This document shows positions 26,290 through 35,091 of a DNA stretch of 47,169 nucleotides, piece by piece (positions within the stretch are counted from its first letter, which is position 1; every line of letters begins with the position of its first letter). The translations under genes and the position numbers were made by a program. The stretch comes from Thermodesulfovibrionales bacterium (GTDB lineage: Bacteria > Nitrospirota > Thermodesulfovibrionia > Thermodesulfovibrionales > Dissulfurispiraceae), in assembly GCA_030017995.1 (NCBI GenBank), contig JASEGS010000012.1, forward strand, positions 1 to 47,169, written 5' to 3'. The notes under the pieces were generated by a model. That model was given only the letters and a program-made list of their open reading frames with translations. It did no database searches and had not been told where the DNA came from.

Positions 26290-26387
26290 GGGAGTGCATA
26301 GGGTTCTGGTGTCCCTCCCGGACTTCAAATCCGGTGTTGCCGCCCAAAAGGCGGCAGGGTGGGTTCGATTCCCACACGCTCCCGCCA
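26290..26387 (+). tRNA. selC: tRNA-Sec (UCA), selC
   Basis: The 98-nt gene has the marks of a bacterial selenocysteine tRNA. The anticodon arm is CCGGA CTTCAAA TCCGG, giving anticodon UCA; an extra-long variable arm is formed by TGCCGCC/GGCGGCA around CAAAA. The T-arm is GTGGG TTCGATT CCCAC, and the long acceptor GGGAGTG pairs with CGCTCCC (one G-U), with a C-A apposition at an eighth pair. Discriminator G and an encoded CCA complete it. It reads UGA when a SECIS is present. selA, selB and selD are not in this window. It lies on the plus strand between the minus-strand mutS2 and histone-like genes. Confidence 0.96.
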
Positions 26388-29924: not shown

Positions 29925-29935
29925 AACTGGCGGAG
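29925..29935. repeat. putative attachment site, distal copy
   Basis: AACTGGCGGAG, identical to the 3' terminus of the tRNA-Ser gene at 34315-34325. The palindrome GTTCGAA-AAAA-TTCGAAC begins 3 bp further inside (29939-29956) and may be part of the recombinase site. Confidence 0.55.
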
Positions 29936-29938
29936 TGC

Positions 29939-29956
29939 GTTCGAAAAAATTCGAAC
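29939..29956. repeat. 7-bp perfect inverted repeat next to the distal attachment site
   Basis: GTTCGAA, spacer AAAA, TTCGAAC. It lies just inside the 11-bp direct repeat, where a recombinase-binding site would be expected. Confidence 0.6.
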
Positions 29957-29990
29957 AGATTTCGCCCAAAATTTGTAACAGGGCGGGCGA

Positions 29991-30045
29991 AATTCCCCCC
30001 AAACCCCCCTTCCGCCCGCCCTGCGGAAGCGACCCTTTCGGATTG
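29991..30045 (-). repeat. 55-bp repeat, copy A
   Basis: It is the reverse complement of 32711-32765 with one mismatch. Both copies contain CAATCCGAAAGGGTCGCTTC followed by a G-rich run. The two copies flank the restriction-modification genes in opposite orientation. In translation it gives SERVASAGRAEGG, a string I recall from Patescibacteria contigs (memory only). Confidence 0.85.
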
Positions 30046-30072
30046 GACGATTTCAAGTTTTTCTTTGGCGGC
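30046..30072 (-). repeat. 27-bp fragment identical to the recombinase 5' coding region
   Basis: On the minus strand it equals 32977-33003 of the recombinase gene, encoding AAKEKLEIV. It directly adjoins the 55-bp repeat copy A and overlaps the 3' end of the hypothetical gene at 30053. It looks like the remnant of a second recombinase gene. Confidence 0.8.
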
Positions 30073-30502
30073 TTTCTTGAAATTCAATTTGAATATCATG
30101 CAAGTCTAAATCTTTTTTCATTCTGGATAAATCCTGCCTCATAGTCAAAATCGTTCTCAAAAATTTTTCGTGCGTAGGATTTTCTATAAACGCCTTGACC
30201 GACAAAATAACTTCTTTCGAGGCATAAAGCATCATTTCGTGGTATTCCATTTTCAGATACTCGATGACATCTTGCGCGTTATCTATATCAGGTTGCCGAC
30301 TCGAAAGATATTTTATATTTTTCGGCTCAAAAAAAGCGTCCATATACAAAAGGCAGGATTTGTACCTTTTTTCTTTCTGCTCTAATACCTTAAACTCTCG
30401 TTCTTTCTTTTTGTCGAGCAAGTAGGTTATGTATCCGCCAACAATACCCCCAACGCCGAGCAAGGTTAGAGCAGTAAAGATTGTTTGGATAGGTTCAGTC
30501 AT
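30053..30502 (-). CDS. hypothetical single-TM protein in the restriction-modification island
   Basis: 149 aa: one TM segment at about residues 8-27, a K/E-rich amphipathic stretch (DKKKEREFKVLEQKEK) and a helical cytoplasmic domain ending at FQESRQRKT. I recognise no domain. The last codons run into the recombinase-fragment repeat at 30046-30072, so the original C-terminus may have been different. It follows the nuclease gene by 20 bp in the same direction and may be an accessory defence gene or a passenger. Confidence 0.6.
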   Translation of the reverse strand: MTEPIQTIFTALTLLGVGGIVGGYITYLLDKKKEREFKVLEQKEKRYKSCLLYMDAFFEPKNIKYLSSRQPDIDNAQDVIEYLKMEYHEMMLYASKEVILSVKAFIENPTHEKFLRTILTMRQDLSRMKKDLDLHDIQIEFQESRQRKT

Positions 30503-30522
30503 AATTTTGGCGGCAAATTCTT

Positions 30523-31185
30523 TTATTTAATTCCACCCTCGGCTAATAACGCTTCGGATTTATATATCCCTTTATTACTTGCATTAAACTCATGCTTAAC
30601 TTGTACTAACATTTTTTCAAGCGTATAAAGTTTCCAATGGATTGGTACAAAAACTGATTTTCCGTTTCTTTTTTCTCTAACTATCTCAAAACCAACCATT
30701 AAATGGCGTGCATTATTAGTAATTTTAGGACTTTCGGAAGGTTGAAAATAGAATGCCCTAAAAGACGAGCCAATACTTTTTTGATTGTAGGTTTTACATT
30801 CTAAATACGTTACCCTGCCATCAACATCTTTGATAGACACATCTGGATAGCCAGCACTTTGATGTTTGCCATTTGTAGTTAGTGGAATTTCTGCTTTCAT
30901 ACCTATACTGTTAAGCGCATCTTTTACAAAGGGTTCTATATGATTACCGACTTCGTTTGGTCTTGCTGTAGAAATTCCTGCCTTATAAGCACTTCTAACT
31001 GCGATGTCCATTGCTTTTGTAAGACGGCTTAATAATTCTTTGTCTTCTCGGTTGTTTTTGTCAAAAGCCAAAACTTCATGTCCGGAAATGGCTTTTATGG
31101 CAACAGGAAAAGGAATATCCTTTAATGGCTTTAGAAATTTTGAAATTGTTTCTTCTAATTGTTTTATGTAATTGTTTTGGTCCAT
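30523..31185 (-). CDS. PD-(D/E)XK-type restriction endonuclease candidate
   Basis: 220 aa. A nuclease-like core is visible: GYPDVSIKD about residue 112, then VTYLECKTYN about residue 127, matching the D-x(n)-ExK pattern. An N-terminal helical region precedes it (KLLEE-like residues 1-90). It ends 1 bp from the methyltransferase gene and is read from the same transcript, so it is probably the cognate restriction enzyme of a type II system. The recognition sequence cannot be predicted. Codon use is A/T-rich like its neighbours. Confidence 0.75.
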   Translation of the reverse strand: MDQNNYIKQLEETISKFLKPLKDIPFPVAIKAISGHEVLAFDKNNREDKELLSRLTKAMDIAVRSAYKAGISTARPNEVGNHIEPFVKDALNSIGMKAEIPLTTNGKHQSAGYPDVSIKDVDGRVTYLECKTYNQKSIGSSFRAFYFQPSESPKITNNARHLMVGFEIVREKRNGKSVFVPIHWKLYTLEKMLVQVKHEFNASNKGIYKSEALLAEGGIK

Positions 31186-31186
31186 A

Positions 31187-32341
31187 TTATTTTTGAAAAA
31201 TTAAAATATATTCTTTTTGCATAACGTTATATAAGCCATAAATTATTTTTTCCATTTTCTTAATGGTTCTAAAACCTATTTTTTCGCAGTAATCTATTAC
31301 ATTTTGAGTAGTGTTTATCTCTTGTCCCTGAAAAGTCACATTTCCGATAATTACGACACAATATTTATCCTTTTTTAGAACTCTATACATTTCACTATAT
31401 GCCTTTTCCATATCCTTATCATACAATTCAAACTTATTTAATCCAGTACCACGAACGCCAATAAAATCTTCTTTTATTTTATCTAAATCATATCCAAGCG
31501 CTTTTAACGAATGGGCATCGTTGGCAACATAATTTAAAGCAATAGAATATGGAGGAGACGTAATAATACCGTCAACAGATTCATCTTTTAAGGGTATTTT
31601 TCTAATATCGTCCTCTAAAATTTTTGTCTTGCCTATTTTTAAATTATGTTTTTTTATTGCATTGCTATAATCTTCAACCGAAGCGATCATTTTTAGGGCG
31701 TCATTCACAAATGAAGAGTCAAAATTTCTTCCTCTTCTTGACTGGTCGCTATGCGCCATCATTTCGGCAACCTTATAAAAATTTTTTACTCTTTCATCGC
31801 TCGGTTCTTTGCTATTCTTTTTGAAAAGATAATAATCTTTATATTTTTTTATTTCATCAATAACGTCAACTGATTCTGTTTTTACCTTTGAAATGAGGAC
31901 ACATAACGGGCTTATATCTATTCCTATTCCGGTTACTCCCAATATTTGGGCTTCTAAAACTGCTGTACCACTTCCAACAAATGGATCAAGTAGAGTTTCG
32001 CCTTCTTTAATTTTTATAACATTCATCAATGCTCTAATCATTTGAGGGTGAAATTTGCCCTTATACGGATAAATCCAATGAGTTAAAAATTGATTCACTG
32101 ATTTTGTTTGATTATATTCCTGTAAATAGTAATAATCGGAATATTCGCCATTTACGGTTTTGAAATATGCCAATCTTCTTTTTAGCTCATTGAAATTTCC
32201 ATCATCTTTTATTTCAAACTCCCTAAAATCATTCGTAACTTTTAAATCAGGATTAAAAGATTGGAGTTCTAATCTTGCCAAAGCGATTTCGTAAATAAAT
32301 TGGATATTATTTAACAATTTTAATTTTTTAATATTTGCCAT
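31187..32341 (-). CDS. type II DNA methyltransferase (N4-cytosine or N6-adenine)
   Basis: The SAM motif DPFVGSGTAVLEA (about residue 118) precedes the catalytic TSPPYSIALNY (about residue 258). TSPPY is typical of N4-cytosine methyltransferases, less often of N6-adenine ones. The C-terminus contains MYRVLKKDKYCVVIIGNV. The 384-aa enzyme should protect host DNA from the adjacent nuclease. It starts 4 bp after the XRE regulator gene, a layout typical for control (C) proteins. Confidence 0.88.
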   Translation of the reverse strand: MANIKKLKLLNNIQFIYEIALARLELQSFNPDLKVTNDFREFEIKDDGNFNELKRRLAYFKTVNGEYSDYYYLQEYNQTKSVNQFLTHWIYPYKGKFHPQMIRALMNVIKIKEGETLLDPFVGSGTAVLEAQILGVTGIGIDISPLCVLISKVKTESVDVIDEIKKYKDYYLFKKNSKEPSDERVKNFYKVAEMMAHSDQSRRGRNFDSSFVNDALKMIASVEDYSNAIKKHNLKIGKTKILEDDIRKIPLKDESVDGIITSPPYSIALNYVANDAHSLKALGYDLDKIKEDFIGVRGTGLNKFELYDKDMEKAYSEMYRVLKKDKYCVVIIGNVTFQGQEINTTQNVIDYCEKIGFRTIKKMEKIIYGLYNVMQKEYILIFQK

Positions 32342-32345
32342 ATTT

Positions 32346-32552
32346 TTATTTAATTAACTCCTCGATATTAACTCCGAGTGCTTTGGCGATTTTTGCCATA
32401 ACAAGCACGGATGGCTTTTTGATTACATTGCTTTCAATTTTTGTCAGAGTGGTATATTTAACACCGGATTTTTTGGCAAAATCCTCTTGTGATAATCCTT
32501 GCTTATTCCGATGTTTCTTTATATTTTTGCCTATGTTGATTTCTGTTGCCAT
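32346..32552 (-). CDS. XRE-family controller protein of the restriction-modification system
   Basis: 68 aa helix-turn-helix: NIGKNIKKHRNKQGLSQEDFAKKSGVKYTTLTKIESN then AKIAKALGVNIEELI. The size and position immediately upstream of the methyltransferase match C proteins that delay restriction relative to methylation. A C-box would be expected at about 32553-32620, but I do not see a clear palindrome there. Confidence 0.85.
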   Translation of the reverse strand: MATEINIGKNIKKHRNKQGLSQEDFAKKSGVKYTTLTKIESNVIKKPSVLVMAKIAKALGVNIEELIK

Positions 32553-32710
32553 ATTTTCAATAATTTGATAGTATGTAAATGATATGTTATTCTTTCAATA
32601 TAATGATACCAAATAAAATGAAAACAATCAAACAGAAAATTCTAAAAAACCTGCTTTTGGCCCAAAATGAAGTTCGAGCCGATATTTTTTCAGGTTCTTT
32701 GGCAGTTTTT

Positions 32711-32765
32711 CAATCCGAAAGGGTCGCTTCCGCAGGGCGGGCGGAAGGGGGGTCTGGGGGGAATT
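32711..32765 (+). repeat. 55-bp repeat, copy B
   Basis: Inverted partner of 29991-30045, one mismatch. Its last 12 bp overlap the left 63-bp arm that flanks the recombinase. Confidence 0.85.
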
Positions 32766-32816
32766 GGCAAGAATTCGCCAGCCGATTCTCCCTTTAAATT
32801 GGAATTTTTTATCTTT
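32754..32816 (+). repeat. 63-bp inverted repeat, left arm
   Basis: A perfect reverse complement of 34246-34308. It starts CTGGGGGGAATTGGCAAG and ends TTTTTTATCTTT. The arms enclose the recombinase gene. Confidence 0.93.
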
Positions 32817-32883
32817 GTCCCGATGCTTCGGGACAGGCCAAAAGCGGGCTTTTTAGAATTTTCTGTTTAAACTTTTTAAAGCT

Positions 32884-34332
32884 ATGAAATACTTTATCTA
32901 CACACGCAAATCAACCGACAGCGAAGAAAGACAGGTTTTAAGTATTGAGGCTCAGCTTGCTGAGCTAAAAGAATTTGCCGCCAAAGAAAAACTTGAAATC
33001 GTCGCCTCGCTCAGCGAGGCAAAAACTGCCAAAGAACCTGGCCGAACTGTGTTCGGCGAAATGTTAGGCAGAATTGAAAATGGCGAAGCTCAAGGAATTT
33101 TGGCTTGGCATCCTGATCGACTGGCAAGGAATTCAATTGATGGCGGAAAACTCATTTATATGCTGGACACAGGAAAGTTAAAAGATTTAAAATTCCCGAT
33201 ATTTTGGTTTGATTCAACGCCGCAAGGCAAATTCATGCTGAACATTGCCTTTGGTCAAAGCAAATACTATGTGGATAACCTTTCAGAAAACATCAAGCGT
33301 GGACACCGTCAGAAGCTGAGAAAAGGCATCTGGCCCGGCTGGGCTCCCTTAGGGTATCTCAATAATCATAAGACAAAGGCAATAGATATAGACCCTGAAA
33401 AAGCCCTGCTTGTAAGAAAAGCATTTGAAATTTATGCCACCGGCGAATATCCGCTAAAAGCCCTTGCCGATGTCTTGGAAAACGCAGGGCTAAGGAGCCA
33501 TCAAGGCAATGTTCTTTCTGTTTCCTGTGTCCAGCATATACTTAAAAATCTAATTTATTGCGGAGTTTTCCGTTACAACGGCGAAATCTATAACGGAACT
33601 CACGAGCCTATTATTTCCAAGAAACTTTTTGACTCTGTTCAGGAAGTGATGTCAAACAGGGGCAAGAAGAAACGAAAAAGAAAACACACTTTTGCTTTTT
33701 CTGGTTTAATGAGATGTGGTAACTGTGATTATATGATAACCACTGAAAAACAAAAAGGTCATAATTACTACCGATGTACCAAGAAAAAGCAAAGGTGTGA
33801 TGAAAAATACCTCCGAGAAGAATCACTTGTTGAACAGATGAAATTATGTATTCAAAAAGTTTCTCTGCCTGATAAATGGGTAAAAAACATGCTTGCCGAG
33901 ATAGACAAAGAAAAAACGCAGGCTGTCGAGAAAACCAATTCTCTTGTTCAAAATCTTGAAAATGAAAAGTTTATGGTTGAGCAGAAAATGGACAAGCTAT
34001 TAGACCTCTATATTGAAGGCAGGGGCATTGAGCTTGAAGAATATCAGGCTAAGAAGCAAAGACTGCTCAACGATAAACTGGACATTCAGCAGAAAATCAA
34101 AGATTTTGAACAAAATGGAAATAATTGGCTCGAACCGATGAAAGAGATGATTTTAGCCAGTAGCCAAGCCAAAATTCTATTGTCGCAGGGCGACAATTAC
34201 AAAATCCTAACATTTCTTAAAAATATCGGCTCGAACTTTATTTTAAAAGATAAAAAATTCCAATTTAAAGGGAGAATCGGCTGGCGAATTCTTGCCAATT
34301 CCCCCCAGTTTCCTAACTGGCGGAGGGGGTGA
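32884..34332 (+). CDS. large serine recombinase (integrase/resolvase family)
   Basis: Residues 1-145 are the resolvase catalytic domain: YTRKSTDSEERQ with the nucleophilic Ser near residue 10, then WHPDRLARNSIDGG. Residues about 150-270 are the recombinase domain (GWAPLGYLNN.., KALADVLENAGLRS). A zinc ribbon (MRCGNCDYMITTEKQ..YYRCTKKKQRC) precedes a coiled coil at about 350-430. The length of 482 aa is typical. The 3' end encodes the right 63-bp arm, then continues into the tRNA-Ser sequence (NWRRG, stop inside the tRNA), so the terminal residues derive from chromosomal tRNA DNA. It most likely catalysed integration of this island. Confidence 0.92.
   Translation: MKYFIYTRKSTDSEERQVLSIEAQLAELKEFAAKEKLEIVASLSEAKTAKEPGRTVFGEMLGRIENGEAQGILAWHPDRLARNSIDGGKLIYMLDTGKLKDLKFPIFWFDSTPQGKFMLNIAFGQSKYYVDNLSENIKRGHRQKLRKGIWPGWAPLGYLNNHKTKAIDIDPEKALLVRKAFEIYATGEYPLKALADVLENAGLRSHQGNVLSVSCVQHILKNLIYCGVFRYNGEIYNGTHEPIISKKLFDSVQEVMSNRGKKKRKRKHTFAFSGLMRCGNCDYMITTEKQKGHNYYRCTKKKQRCDEKYLREESLVEQMKLCIQKVSLPDKWVKNMLAEIDKEKTQAVEKTNSLVQNLENEKFMVEQKMDKLLDLYIEGRGIELEEYQAKKQRLLNDKLDIQQKIKDFEQNGNNWLEPMKEMILASSQAKILLSQGDNYKILTFLKNIGSNFILKDKKFQFKGRIGWRILANSPQFPNWRRG
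34246..34308 (-). repeat. 63-bp inverted repeat, right arm
   Basis: The perfect reverse complement of 32754-32816. It is part of the recombinase coding sequence, giving its last about 20 residues before the tRNA. Confidence 0.93.
34315..34325. repeat. putative attachment site at the tRNA-Ser 3' end
   Basis: AACTGGCGGAG: in tRNA orientation this is the end of the acceptor, the CCA and three following bases. A second copy at 29925-29935 lies at the other end of the island. Confidence 0.55.
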
Positions 34333-34407
34333 GATTCGAACTCACGGTAGAGTTGCCCCTACAACGATTTTCAAGACCGTCGCTTTCAACCGCTCAGCCA
34401 CCCCTCC
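34318..34407 (-). tRNA. tRNA-Ser (TGA)
   Basis: Minus strand, 90 nt with CCA. Acceptor GGAGGGG/CCCCTCC, D-arm GGCTGAGCGGTTGAAAGC, anticodon loop CTTGAAA giving TGA, long variable arm (GTAGGGGCAACTCTAC) as in class II tRNAs, T-arm with GAGTTCGAATCTC. CCA is encoded at 34320-34318. It is the integration target of the neighbouring island and remains intact. Confidence 0.95.
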
Positions 34408-34656: not shown

Positions 34657-35091
34657 CTAAATCTTAAGCAATACCATTTTGGAAACAGGGTCAAGCTCCC
34701 TTACTGCGTTTACTCCCTTTATCTCCATAATTATCGCCTCAAGCACAAGGAATGTCTCTGCATTCTCACGCATGCATCCCATCTTTACACTGTCGCGCTT
34801 TCCATATGCCCCGTGAAGATGCATCTTTGGCTCATCGCCCTGCCAGAAGATGGTGCCCAACCCAAGGATTTCGTGGCTTTCCTTTAGTTCTCTCCATACA
34901 GGAACAGGCGGAATTTCTTCTTTTTCGGGACCTACAACAAATCTGCCTGCCTTCATCCCGCCAACGAGGTAAAATACACCTGCCCTTATATCCTCTTTCT
35001 TGGCGATCTCTGTCAGCCCATGCAATATATTGTCTCCGTCTTCAAACCTGATAATAATAGTTCTGCCCACCTCTCCAACCTGATAGTTCAT
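34657..35091 (-). CDS. PPC (DUF296)-domain protein
   Basis: 144 aa with the plants-and-prokaryotes-conserved fold: TIIIRFEDGDNILHGLTEIAKKE, AGVFYLVGGMKAGRF, MHLHGAYG and AETFLVLEAIIMEI. In plants the domain partners an AT-hook; in bacteria the stand-alone form has unknown function. The His in HLHG is in the position of the family's metal-binding histidines. It is the last gene of the minus-strand run after the CAP-domain gene (32-bp gap). Confidence 0.85.
   Translation of the reverse strand: MNYQVGEVGRTIIIRFEDGDNILHGLTEIAKKEDIRAGVFYLVGGMKAGRFVVGPEKEEIPPVPVWRELKESHEILGLGTIFWQGDEPKMHLHGAYGKRDSVKMGCMRENAETFLVLEAIIMEIKGVNAVRELDPVSKMVLLKI

What the first reader, a model, noticed from the sequence alone, without database searches (positions are those of the whole stretch)
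29925..34325. tRNA-Ser island with restriction-modification module and serine recombinase
The direct repeat AACTGGCGGAG at both ends, with one copy being the tRNA-Ser 3' end, gives a clear integration picture, although large serine recombinases are less often tRNA-specific than tyrosine ones. The recombinase C-terminus reads into the tRNA. The translated repeat strings (SERVASAGRAEGG and PKGSLPQGGRKGG) recall Patescibacteria contigs, hinting at a cross-phylum source.
Basis: partly seen in the sequence, partly recalled or inferred. Interest (0 to 1): 0.68.

Follow-up and report, generated by a model that had tools for sequence, protein, structure and literature searches.

The report
Self-folding tRNA-targeting serine recombinase element
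A small jumping element that inserts at the ends of tRNA genes in many unrelated bacteria is built so that one DNA strand, its recombinase gene included, can fold back on itself, which suggests it moves as a folded single strand; this pattern of DNA pairing running through a gene was not found described in the open literature searched.

Summary
An 11-nt direct repeat (29925-29935 / 34315-34325) overlaps the tRNA-Ser(tga) 3' end and encloses a type II restriction-modification module and a large serine recombinase. Same-family relatives keep the tRNA-Ser neighbourhood without the element. Relatives of the recombinase (49-91% identical) lie at antisense tRNA 3' ends of 14 amino-acid types in at least 8 phyla. 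Near-identical copies (98.4-99.6% of 1.7 kb) occur in Nitrospirota, Patescibacteria and a Bacteroidota isolate.

Short stretches of the recombinase gene recur as antisense copies in the flanks, each matching that element's own diverged gene. The recombinase gene itself is full of long-range inverted repeats (7.1 per gene versus 0.6 in synonymous shuffles). Cargo, host genes and unrelated serine integrases lack this. The paired segments abut to form near-perfect four-way junctions and supply a second, inverted copy of the attachment site. Pairs change mostly by double Watson-Crick substitutions without RNA-like G-U preference, so the paired molecule is probably DNA.

Best explanation: a mobile cassette carrier with a folded single-stranded DNA stage that forms its own double-stranded attP, as CTXphi does. 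The folding architecture is shown; the single-stranded stage is inferred. The window's copy has lost its inverted attP core.

The parts
29925..29935 (+). attL copy of the direct repeat AACTGGCGGAG (core)
   Evidence: its continuation outward (CTCCGCCAGTTTAC on the minus strand) matches the tRNA-Ser trailer of an empty site in relative G012
29936..30045 (+). X, left terminal segment; 29991-30045 pairs with 32711-32765 (54/55)
   Evidence: X located in 38 related elements
30046..30072 (+). A' part 2: antisense copy of recombinase nt 94-120 (27/27 paired)
30053..30502 (-). Small predicted membrane protein of unknown function; splits A', with TTTGGCGGC duplicated on both sides
   Evidence: no Pfam match
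30506..30525 (+). A' part 1: antisense copy of recombinase nt 83-102 (20/20 paired)
30523..31185 (-). Type II restriction endonuclease
   Evidence: PDLC03511 E=9e-41 over the full length
31187..32341 (-). Type II DNA methyltransferase (N6/N4 type)
32346..32552 (-). HTH regulator, Cro/C1 type, controller-like
32621..32662 (+). Z', pairs with Z 32836-32877 (36/42)
32664..32689 (+). C', antisense copy of recombinase nt 1336-1361 (25/26)
   Evidence: conserved in relatives
32691..32710 (+). B', antisense copy of recombinase nt 138-157 (20/20)
   Evidence: conserved in relatives
32711..32765 (+). Remnant of X' (inverted copy of the left end); here fused to D' at a shared CTGGGGGGAATT, so the inverted attP core is lost
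   Evidence: intact X'-core'-D' seen in L007, L010, L014, L016
32754..32816 (+). D', exact inverted copy of the recombinase 3' end 34246-34308 (63/63)
32816..32835 (+). Hairpin TGTCCCGATGCTTCGGGACA between D' and Z
   Evidence: sequence; different hairpins at the same place in relatives
32836..32877 (+). Z
32884..34332 (+). Large serine recombinase, 482 aa (Resolvase, Recombinase, zinc ribbon); coding sequence folds with z about -11 to -13 against synonymous shuffles
32966..33003 (+). A, recombinase nt 83-120, partner of A'
33004..33020 (+). hp1, 17-nt hairpin inside the coding sequence (stem 8/8)
33021..33040 (+). B, partner of B'
33041..33057 (+). hp2, 17-nt hairpin inside the coding sequence (stem 7/7)
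33058..33068 (+). K, pairs with 34206-34216 (11/11); closes the recombinase body
33095..34177 (+). Internal long-range helices: 33095-33109:34163-34177, 33157-33176:33521-33540, 33240-33251:33503-33514, 33603-33619:34116-34132, 33620-33632:33852-33864, 33685-33702:33782-33799, 33944-33957:34100-34113
34218..34244 (+). C, partner of C'
34246..34308 (+). D, recombinase C-terminal codons, partner of D' and inferred half of attP
34315..34325 (+). attR copy of the direct repeat (core), overlapping the tRNA-Ser 3' end
34318..34407 (-). tRNA-Ser(tga), target gene

Best explanation
It is one member of a family of small mobile elements (end modules plus 0.6-5.5 kb of cargo, usually one to three genes) that a self-encoded large serine recombinase places at the CCA ends of tRNA genes. 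SHOWN by sequence: insertion at tRNA 3' ends; empty sites in relatives; cross-phylum spread; exchangeable cargo; a conserved set of intrastrand complementary segments (X/X', A/A', B/B', C/C', D/D', Z/Z' and many helices inside the recombinase gene) that abut to make near-perfect multi-way junctions and co-vary with each element's own gene; and an inverted full copy of the attachment site (X'-core'-D') upstream of the recombinase in relatives. INFERRED: the element has a single-stranded DNA stage that folds through these pairs. Pairing of D-core-X with X'-core'-D' gives a double-stranded attP on one strand, which the recombinase can use, as the folded attP of the CTXphi (+) strand and integron attC sites do. 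The gene-wide folding would keep that strand compact and protected, with the cargo in the large unpaired loop. How the single strand arises (DNA uptake, conjugation, rolling circle, lagging strand) is not known. The window copy carries an R-M system and has lost the inverted attP core, so it may be impaired.
For: Antisense copies matching the element's own recombinase in about 45-58 loci: A 1178 WC of 1196 positions, B 1002 of 1018, C 1369 of 1406, D 4646 of 4805. D matches its own element with median score 159 against 20 for other elements. Inverted repeats in the coding sequence: 7.09 per gene against 0.56 in synonymous shuffles, summed score above shuffles in 68 of 68 genes. Fold z -3 to -13 in 16 family genes, but -1.5 to +0.6 in three unrelated serine integrases, within about 2 sd for R-M and host genes, and -1.7/-3.0 for 30053-30502, which itself contains A'. 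Helices recur at homologous positions with many arm sequences, e.g. 1067:1224 in 44 loci with 31 distinct arms. Hairpins hp1 and hp2: 95 double changes against 33 expected, 0 of 500 shuffles; slid controls 25-46% paired. Junction gaps mostly 0-1 nt in 35 elements. Synonymous-site conservation peaks at the paired segments. Inverted attP copy upstream of the recombinase. DNA rather than RNA: GU:AC mismatches 59:63 and 64:48, against 42:0 in tRNA acceptor stems of the same loci. The left-end partners lie beyond oppositely transcribed cargo. Mobility. CTXphi precedent: PMC3089051.
Against: No direct sign of single-stranded DNA, circular forms or transfer genes. Serine recombinases cut both strands of both sites, so a folded attP would leave hairpin joints unless processed further; CTXphi and integrons use tyrosine recombinases that exchange one strand pair. 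The full set of helices closes a ring of roughly 280 bp, so they may not all form at once. In 13 of about 51 upstream-covered loci tested no left-end partner was found within the stored DNA. Symmetric mismatch counts show a slight GU excess. The window copy lacks the inverted core.
Confidence: 0.55

Rival explanations
1. RNA structure: the recombinase transcript folds through these pairs and acts as a structured or guide RNA, or as a switch for its own translation, in the manner of bridge RNAs.
For: The sense strand folds slightly better than the antisense strand. Internal helices show some GU excess (18:3:12).
Against: Mismatches in the paired segments show no RNA-like wobble preference, unlike tRNA stems in the same loci. 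Double changes lack GU intermediates. X and A' lie beyond cargo transcribed the other way, so no ordinary transcript holds all partners. No Rfam family besides the tRNA.
Confidence: 0.15
2. Ordinary double-stranded integrative island; inverted repeats persist without function because hairpin-templated replication errors (quasi-palindrome correction) keep making them perfect.
For: Near-perfect pairing and symmetric mismatch types are what such correction would give. The double-stranded route suffices for the observed attL and attR.
Against: It does not explain zero-gap junctions with a hairpin at the same places in 35 elements, recurrence of helices across 50% protein divergence, absence from cargo and from other serine integrases, or pairing between segments kilobases apart. 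It would still need a recurring folded single strand.
Confidence: 0.18
3. The inverted attP copy is a recombination site for programmed inversion of the recombinase module (phase switch), and the short antisense segments are by-products.
For: D-core-X and X'-core'-D' are inverted around the recombinase in the circular form. Many contigs break in this region.
Against: Inversion does not need A, B, C or the helices inside the gene. No inverted isomer was noticed among the loci read.
Confidence: 0.07
4. Plain known kind: a tRNA-Ser genomic island with a serine integrase and R-M cargo, nothing more.
For: att repeats, tRNA target, empty sites and cargo all fit.
Against: It leaves the gene-wide complementary architecture unexplained.
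Confidence: 0.05

Closest known systems
CTXphi-type folded attP on (+) single-stranded DNA
   Same: Two attachment-site copies in opposite orientation that can pair on one strand to make a double-stranded attP (PMC3089051).
   Different: Own serine recombinase instead of host XerCD; tRNA 3' ends instead of dif; no phage genes seen in the cargo sampled; pairing extends through the recombinase gene and both ends, not just a 150-bp hairpin.
Integron gene cassettes with attC sites
   Same: Small modules with exchangeable cargo and structure-bearing recombination DNA that can fold on one strand.
   Different: Serine, not tyrosine, recombinase; each element carries its own recombinase; no cassette arrays seen; the structure includes coding sequence.
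Large serine recombinases of phages and islands (e.g. Geobacillus virus E2 integrase)
   Same: Resolvase, recombinase and zinc-ribbon domains.
   Different: About 29% identity; the control genes show no coding-sequence folding; this family uses many tRNA 3' ends.
Integrative and mobilizable elements
   Same: Small integrated elements that need outside help to transfer.
   Different: No relaxase among the cargo proteins scanned.
IS110-type elements with bridge RNA
   Same: Recombinase linked to a non-coding region complementary to its own ends.
   Different: Serine rather than DEDD recombinase; pairing looks DNA-like; no Rfam match.

Membership tests
Large serine recombinase | N-terminal resolvase domain followed by recombinase domain and zinc ribbon | tested here: met
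   PF00239 E 5.6e-18, PF07508 E 1.3e-16, PF13408 E 8.2e-08; resolvase-type motifs RKSTDS and PDRLAR read
Large serine recombinase | attP x attB recombination activity | not testable with these tools
   needs an assay
tRNA-integrated genomic island | direct repeat, one copy being the tRNA 3' end | tested here: met
tRNA-integrated genomic island | empty site in relatives | tested here: met
   for tRNA-Ser(tga); for a relative element at tRNA-Ser(cga)
Type II restriction-modification | cognate methyltransferase and endonuclease genes side by side | tested here: met
   by profile only; activity not tested
CTXphi-like single-stranded integrating element | two inverted attP copies able to pair on one strand | tested here: met
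   met in relatives; in the window copy the inverted core is deleted
CTXphi-like single-stranded integrating element | filamentous phage genes, host Xer recombinase and dif target | tested here: not met
   own serine recombinase, tRNA target, no phage genes in cargo scanned
CTXphi-like single-stranded integrating element | single-stranded DNA is the integrating form | not testable with these tools
   inferred only
Integron cassette | tyrosine integrase IntI acting on attC | tested here: not met
IS110 / bridge RNA element | DEDD recombinase | tested here: not met
Integrative and mobilizable element | relaxase or oriT | tested here: inconclusive
   no relaxase among scanned cargo; oriT not searched

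The most novel reading that the evidence does not exclude
A new class of mobile element whose transmissible form is a self-folded single DNA strand: the recombinase coding sequence is at the same time a DNA scaffold with four-way junctions, and the strand builds its own double-stranded attP, which a serine recombinase inserts into tRNA genes across phyla.
Probability: 0.45. Interest if true: 0.93.

Novelty: categorically new. Interest (0 to 1): 0.85.

Why it matters
A protein-coding gene that is also an evolutionarily maintained DNA fold, with co-varying pairs across 50% protein divergence, would be a new relation between coding sequence and DNA structure. The elements cross phylum borders with almost identical sequence and carry restriction-modification and other genes, so they may be a route of gene flow into and out of Patescibacteria and their neighbours. 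If the single-stranded stage is real, it would extend folded-strand integration from tyrosine to serine recombinases and could yield a compact integrase that targets tRNA ends.

Tried and rejected
No close recombinase relative in phages, plasmids or IMG/VR, so a phage or plasmid origin is not supported by those collections. The dsbC-tRNA empty site is not findable, since dsbC is elsewhere in relatives. A first tRNA-stem control used a faulty stem definition and was replaced. A larger fold comparison timed out; a first junction script failed. The idea that the inverted repeats are a two-copy rearrangement scar of this genome was rejected, because the same segments are paired in dozens of elements. 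Position-fixed tests of the window's internal helices on all distant relatives are weak because helices shift; per-gene detection was used instead. The Rfam hit RF04351 is below its gathering score and lies on the antisense of the tRNA. Literature searches returned no hit, by title, abstract or the passages read, describing such elements; only open-licence papers were searched.
Full report
WHAT WAS CLAIMED AND WHAT IS THERE. The direct repeat AACTGGCGGAG is present exactly twice in the window, at 29925 and 34315. The right copy overlaps the CCA end of tRNA-Ser(tga) at 34318-34407, minus strand. Between the copies lie, from the left, a small predicted membrane protein (30053-30502), a type II endonuclease (30523-31185), a type II methyltransferase (31187-32341) and an HTH gene (32346-32552), all on the minus strand, then a large serine recombinase (32884-34332) on the plus strand. 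The recombinase frame runs into the tRNA.

EMPTY SITES. The gene next to the tRNA on the far side (PCC domain, 34657-35091) is followed by tRNA-Ser(tga) in at least nine relatives of the same family, and in the eight whose downstream sequence was read none carries the element after the tRNA 3' end. In relative G012 the sequence after the tRNA reads CTCCGCCAGTTTAC, the same as the window reads outward from its left repeat. A near-identical element in a Thermodesulfovibrio MAG sits at tRNA-Ser(cga); two congeners keep that tRNA and about 3 kb beyond it at 77-78% identity and have no recombinase there.

FAMILY AND SPREAD. One scan of GTDB contigs gave 80 loci encoding relatives at 49-91% identity, in Patescibacteria, Nitrospirota, Bacteroidota, Chloroflexota, Desulfobacterota-type, Omnitrophota, Margulisbacteria-type and Latescibacterota genomes as named in the records. 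In 54 of 71 loci with enough downstream DNA, an antisense tRNA gene begins at the recombinase 3' end: Ser 23, Leu 8, Ala 4, Glu 4, Gln 3, Arg 3, Val 2, and one each of Trp, Asn, Gly, Tyr, Ile, Lys and Phe. The recombinase module of L008 (Nitrospirota MAG), L009 (Patescibacteria MAG) and L010 (Schleiferia thermophila DSM 21410, an isolate) is 98.4-99.6% identical over about 1.7 kb. L007 and L010 share both ends at 94-96% but not the cargo. In the host phylum 5 of 295 genomes have it at E below 1e-100. Cargo is variable: several R-M systems, an ABC/SMC-type ATPase, HNH, P-type ATPase, sodium/calcium exchanger, dihydroorotate dehydrogenase, polyprenyl synthase and unknowns, nearly always on the strand opposite to the recombinase.

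THE UNEXPECTED PART. Four stretches of the recombinase gene (A nt 83-120, B 138-157, C 1335-1361, D 1363 to the end) occur as antisense copies outside it: C', B' and D' just upstream of the gene, A' at the far left end. In relatives the upstream region holds a complete inverted copy of the circular attachment site, X'-core'-D'. The copies match the element's own gene even when the gene has diverged: D scores 159 against 20 for other elements, C 50 against 34, B 40 against 30. Over about 45-58 loci the paired positions are 97-98% Watson-Crick.

Inside the gene there are also long-range pairs. Inverted repeats with at least 12 Watson-Crick pairs number 7.09 per gene against 0.56 in synonymous shuffles, and summed repeat scores exceed shuffles in 68 of 68 genes. 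Many recur at homologous positions with different sequences, e.g. 742:976 in 61 genes, 1067:1224 in 44 with 31 distinct arms, 181:1327 in 42 with 29 distinct arms. Folding energy is far below synonymous shuffles in all 16 family genes tested (z -3 to -13). It is within about 2 sd for the R-M and host genes, -1.7 and -3.0 on the two strands of 30053-30502, which includes A', and -1.5 to +0.6 for three unrelated serine integrases. Synonymous sites are most conserved where these pairs lie.

The arms abut. X is followed directly by A', B' directly by X', C' directly by B', and C by D, with gaps of 0-1 nt in most of 35 elements; between A and B the gene carries a 17-nt hairpin. That makes junctions of four helices: X, A, hp1, B; then B, hp2, K, C; then C, D, a hairpin, Z. 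The two hairpins in the coding sequence co-vary strongly: 95 double changes against 33 expected, 0 of 500 shuffles, 92.6% paired against 25-46% when slid.

DNA OR RNA. In tRNA acceptor stems of the same loci non-Watson-Crick pairs are 42 GU, 0 AC and 4 other. In the element's paired segments they are 59 GU, 63 AC and 108 other; among isolated mismatches flanked by pairs, 64 GU, 48 AC and 71 other. Internal repeats detected strictly gave 18 GU and 3 AC. Overall this is not RNA-like, though a small sense-strand GU excess exists. Also, A' and X lie beyond oppositely transcribed cargo. DNA pairing is therefore the better reading; this is inference.

HOW IT PROBABLY WORKS. The known parallel is CTXphi, whose two inverted attP copies pair on the (+) single strand to unmask a double-stranded site (PMC3089051). 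Here D-core-X pairs with X'-core'-D' in the same way, and the other pairs fold the rest of the strand apart from the cargo loop. After integration the expected product is host-core-X ... X'-core'-D' ... D-core-tRNA, which is what is seen; but a double-stranded circle would give the same product, so this does not prove the route. The difficulty is that serine recombinases cut both strands. How the single strand would arise is open.

THE WINDOW COPY. Its X' and D' are fused at a shared CTGGGGGGAATT (32754-32765), which removes the inverted core, and a gene is inserted in A' between two copies of TTTGGCGGC. It may therefore be impaired. All other arms are present.

LIMITS. Everything is from sequence. 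Most relatives are metagenome-assembled. Copy counts are not independent because the elements are related; synonymous shuffles, swap tests and slid controls were used to offset this. The literature search covered open-licence papers only.

Noticed in passing
L144 (G000 contig C4), 1-1350: A second, more distant recombinase of the same family (41-44% identical, C-terminal half) at tRNA-Ser(cga) in the same genome; its front is replaced by an IS3-type transposase sequence at the contig edge.
   Followed up: partly
window 30053-30502: The small membrane-protein gene splits the A' segment with a 9-nt duplication TTTGGCGGC; other elements have paired hairpins at the same place.
   Followed up: partly
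window 32621-32662 and 32836-32877: The Z arms look like the two halves of a bidirectional terminator (A-tract, GC stem, T-tract) around the whole inverted attP region; clearer in L007 and L010.
   Followed up: no
L004, L005, L008, L009, L015, L021 and other loci, upstream of the recombinase: Many metagenome contigs break within a few hundred bases upstream of the recombinase, as if the inverted repeats or variable cargo defeat assembly.
   Followed up: no
L010 1651-2502: An integrase-core (rve) transposase gene lies within the R-M cargo of the Schleiferia element.
   Followed up: no
window 26290-26387: A tRNA-SeC gene lies near the island; in relative G005 tRNA-SeC is only about 640 bases from the empty tRNA-Ser.
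   Followed up: no
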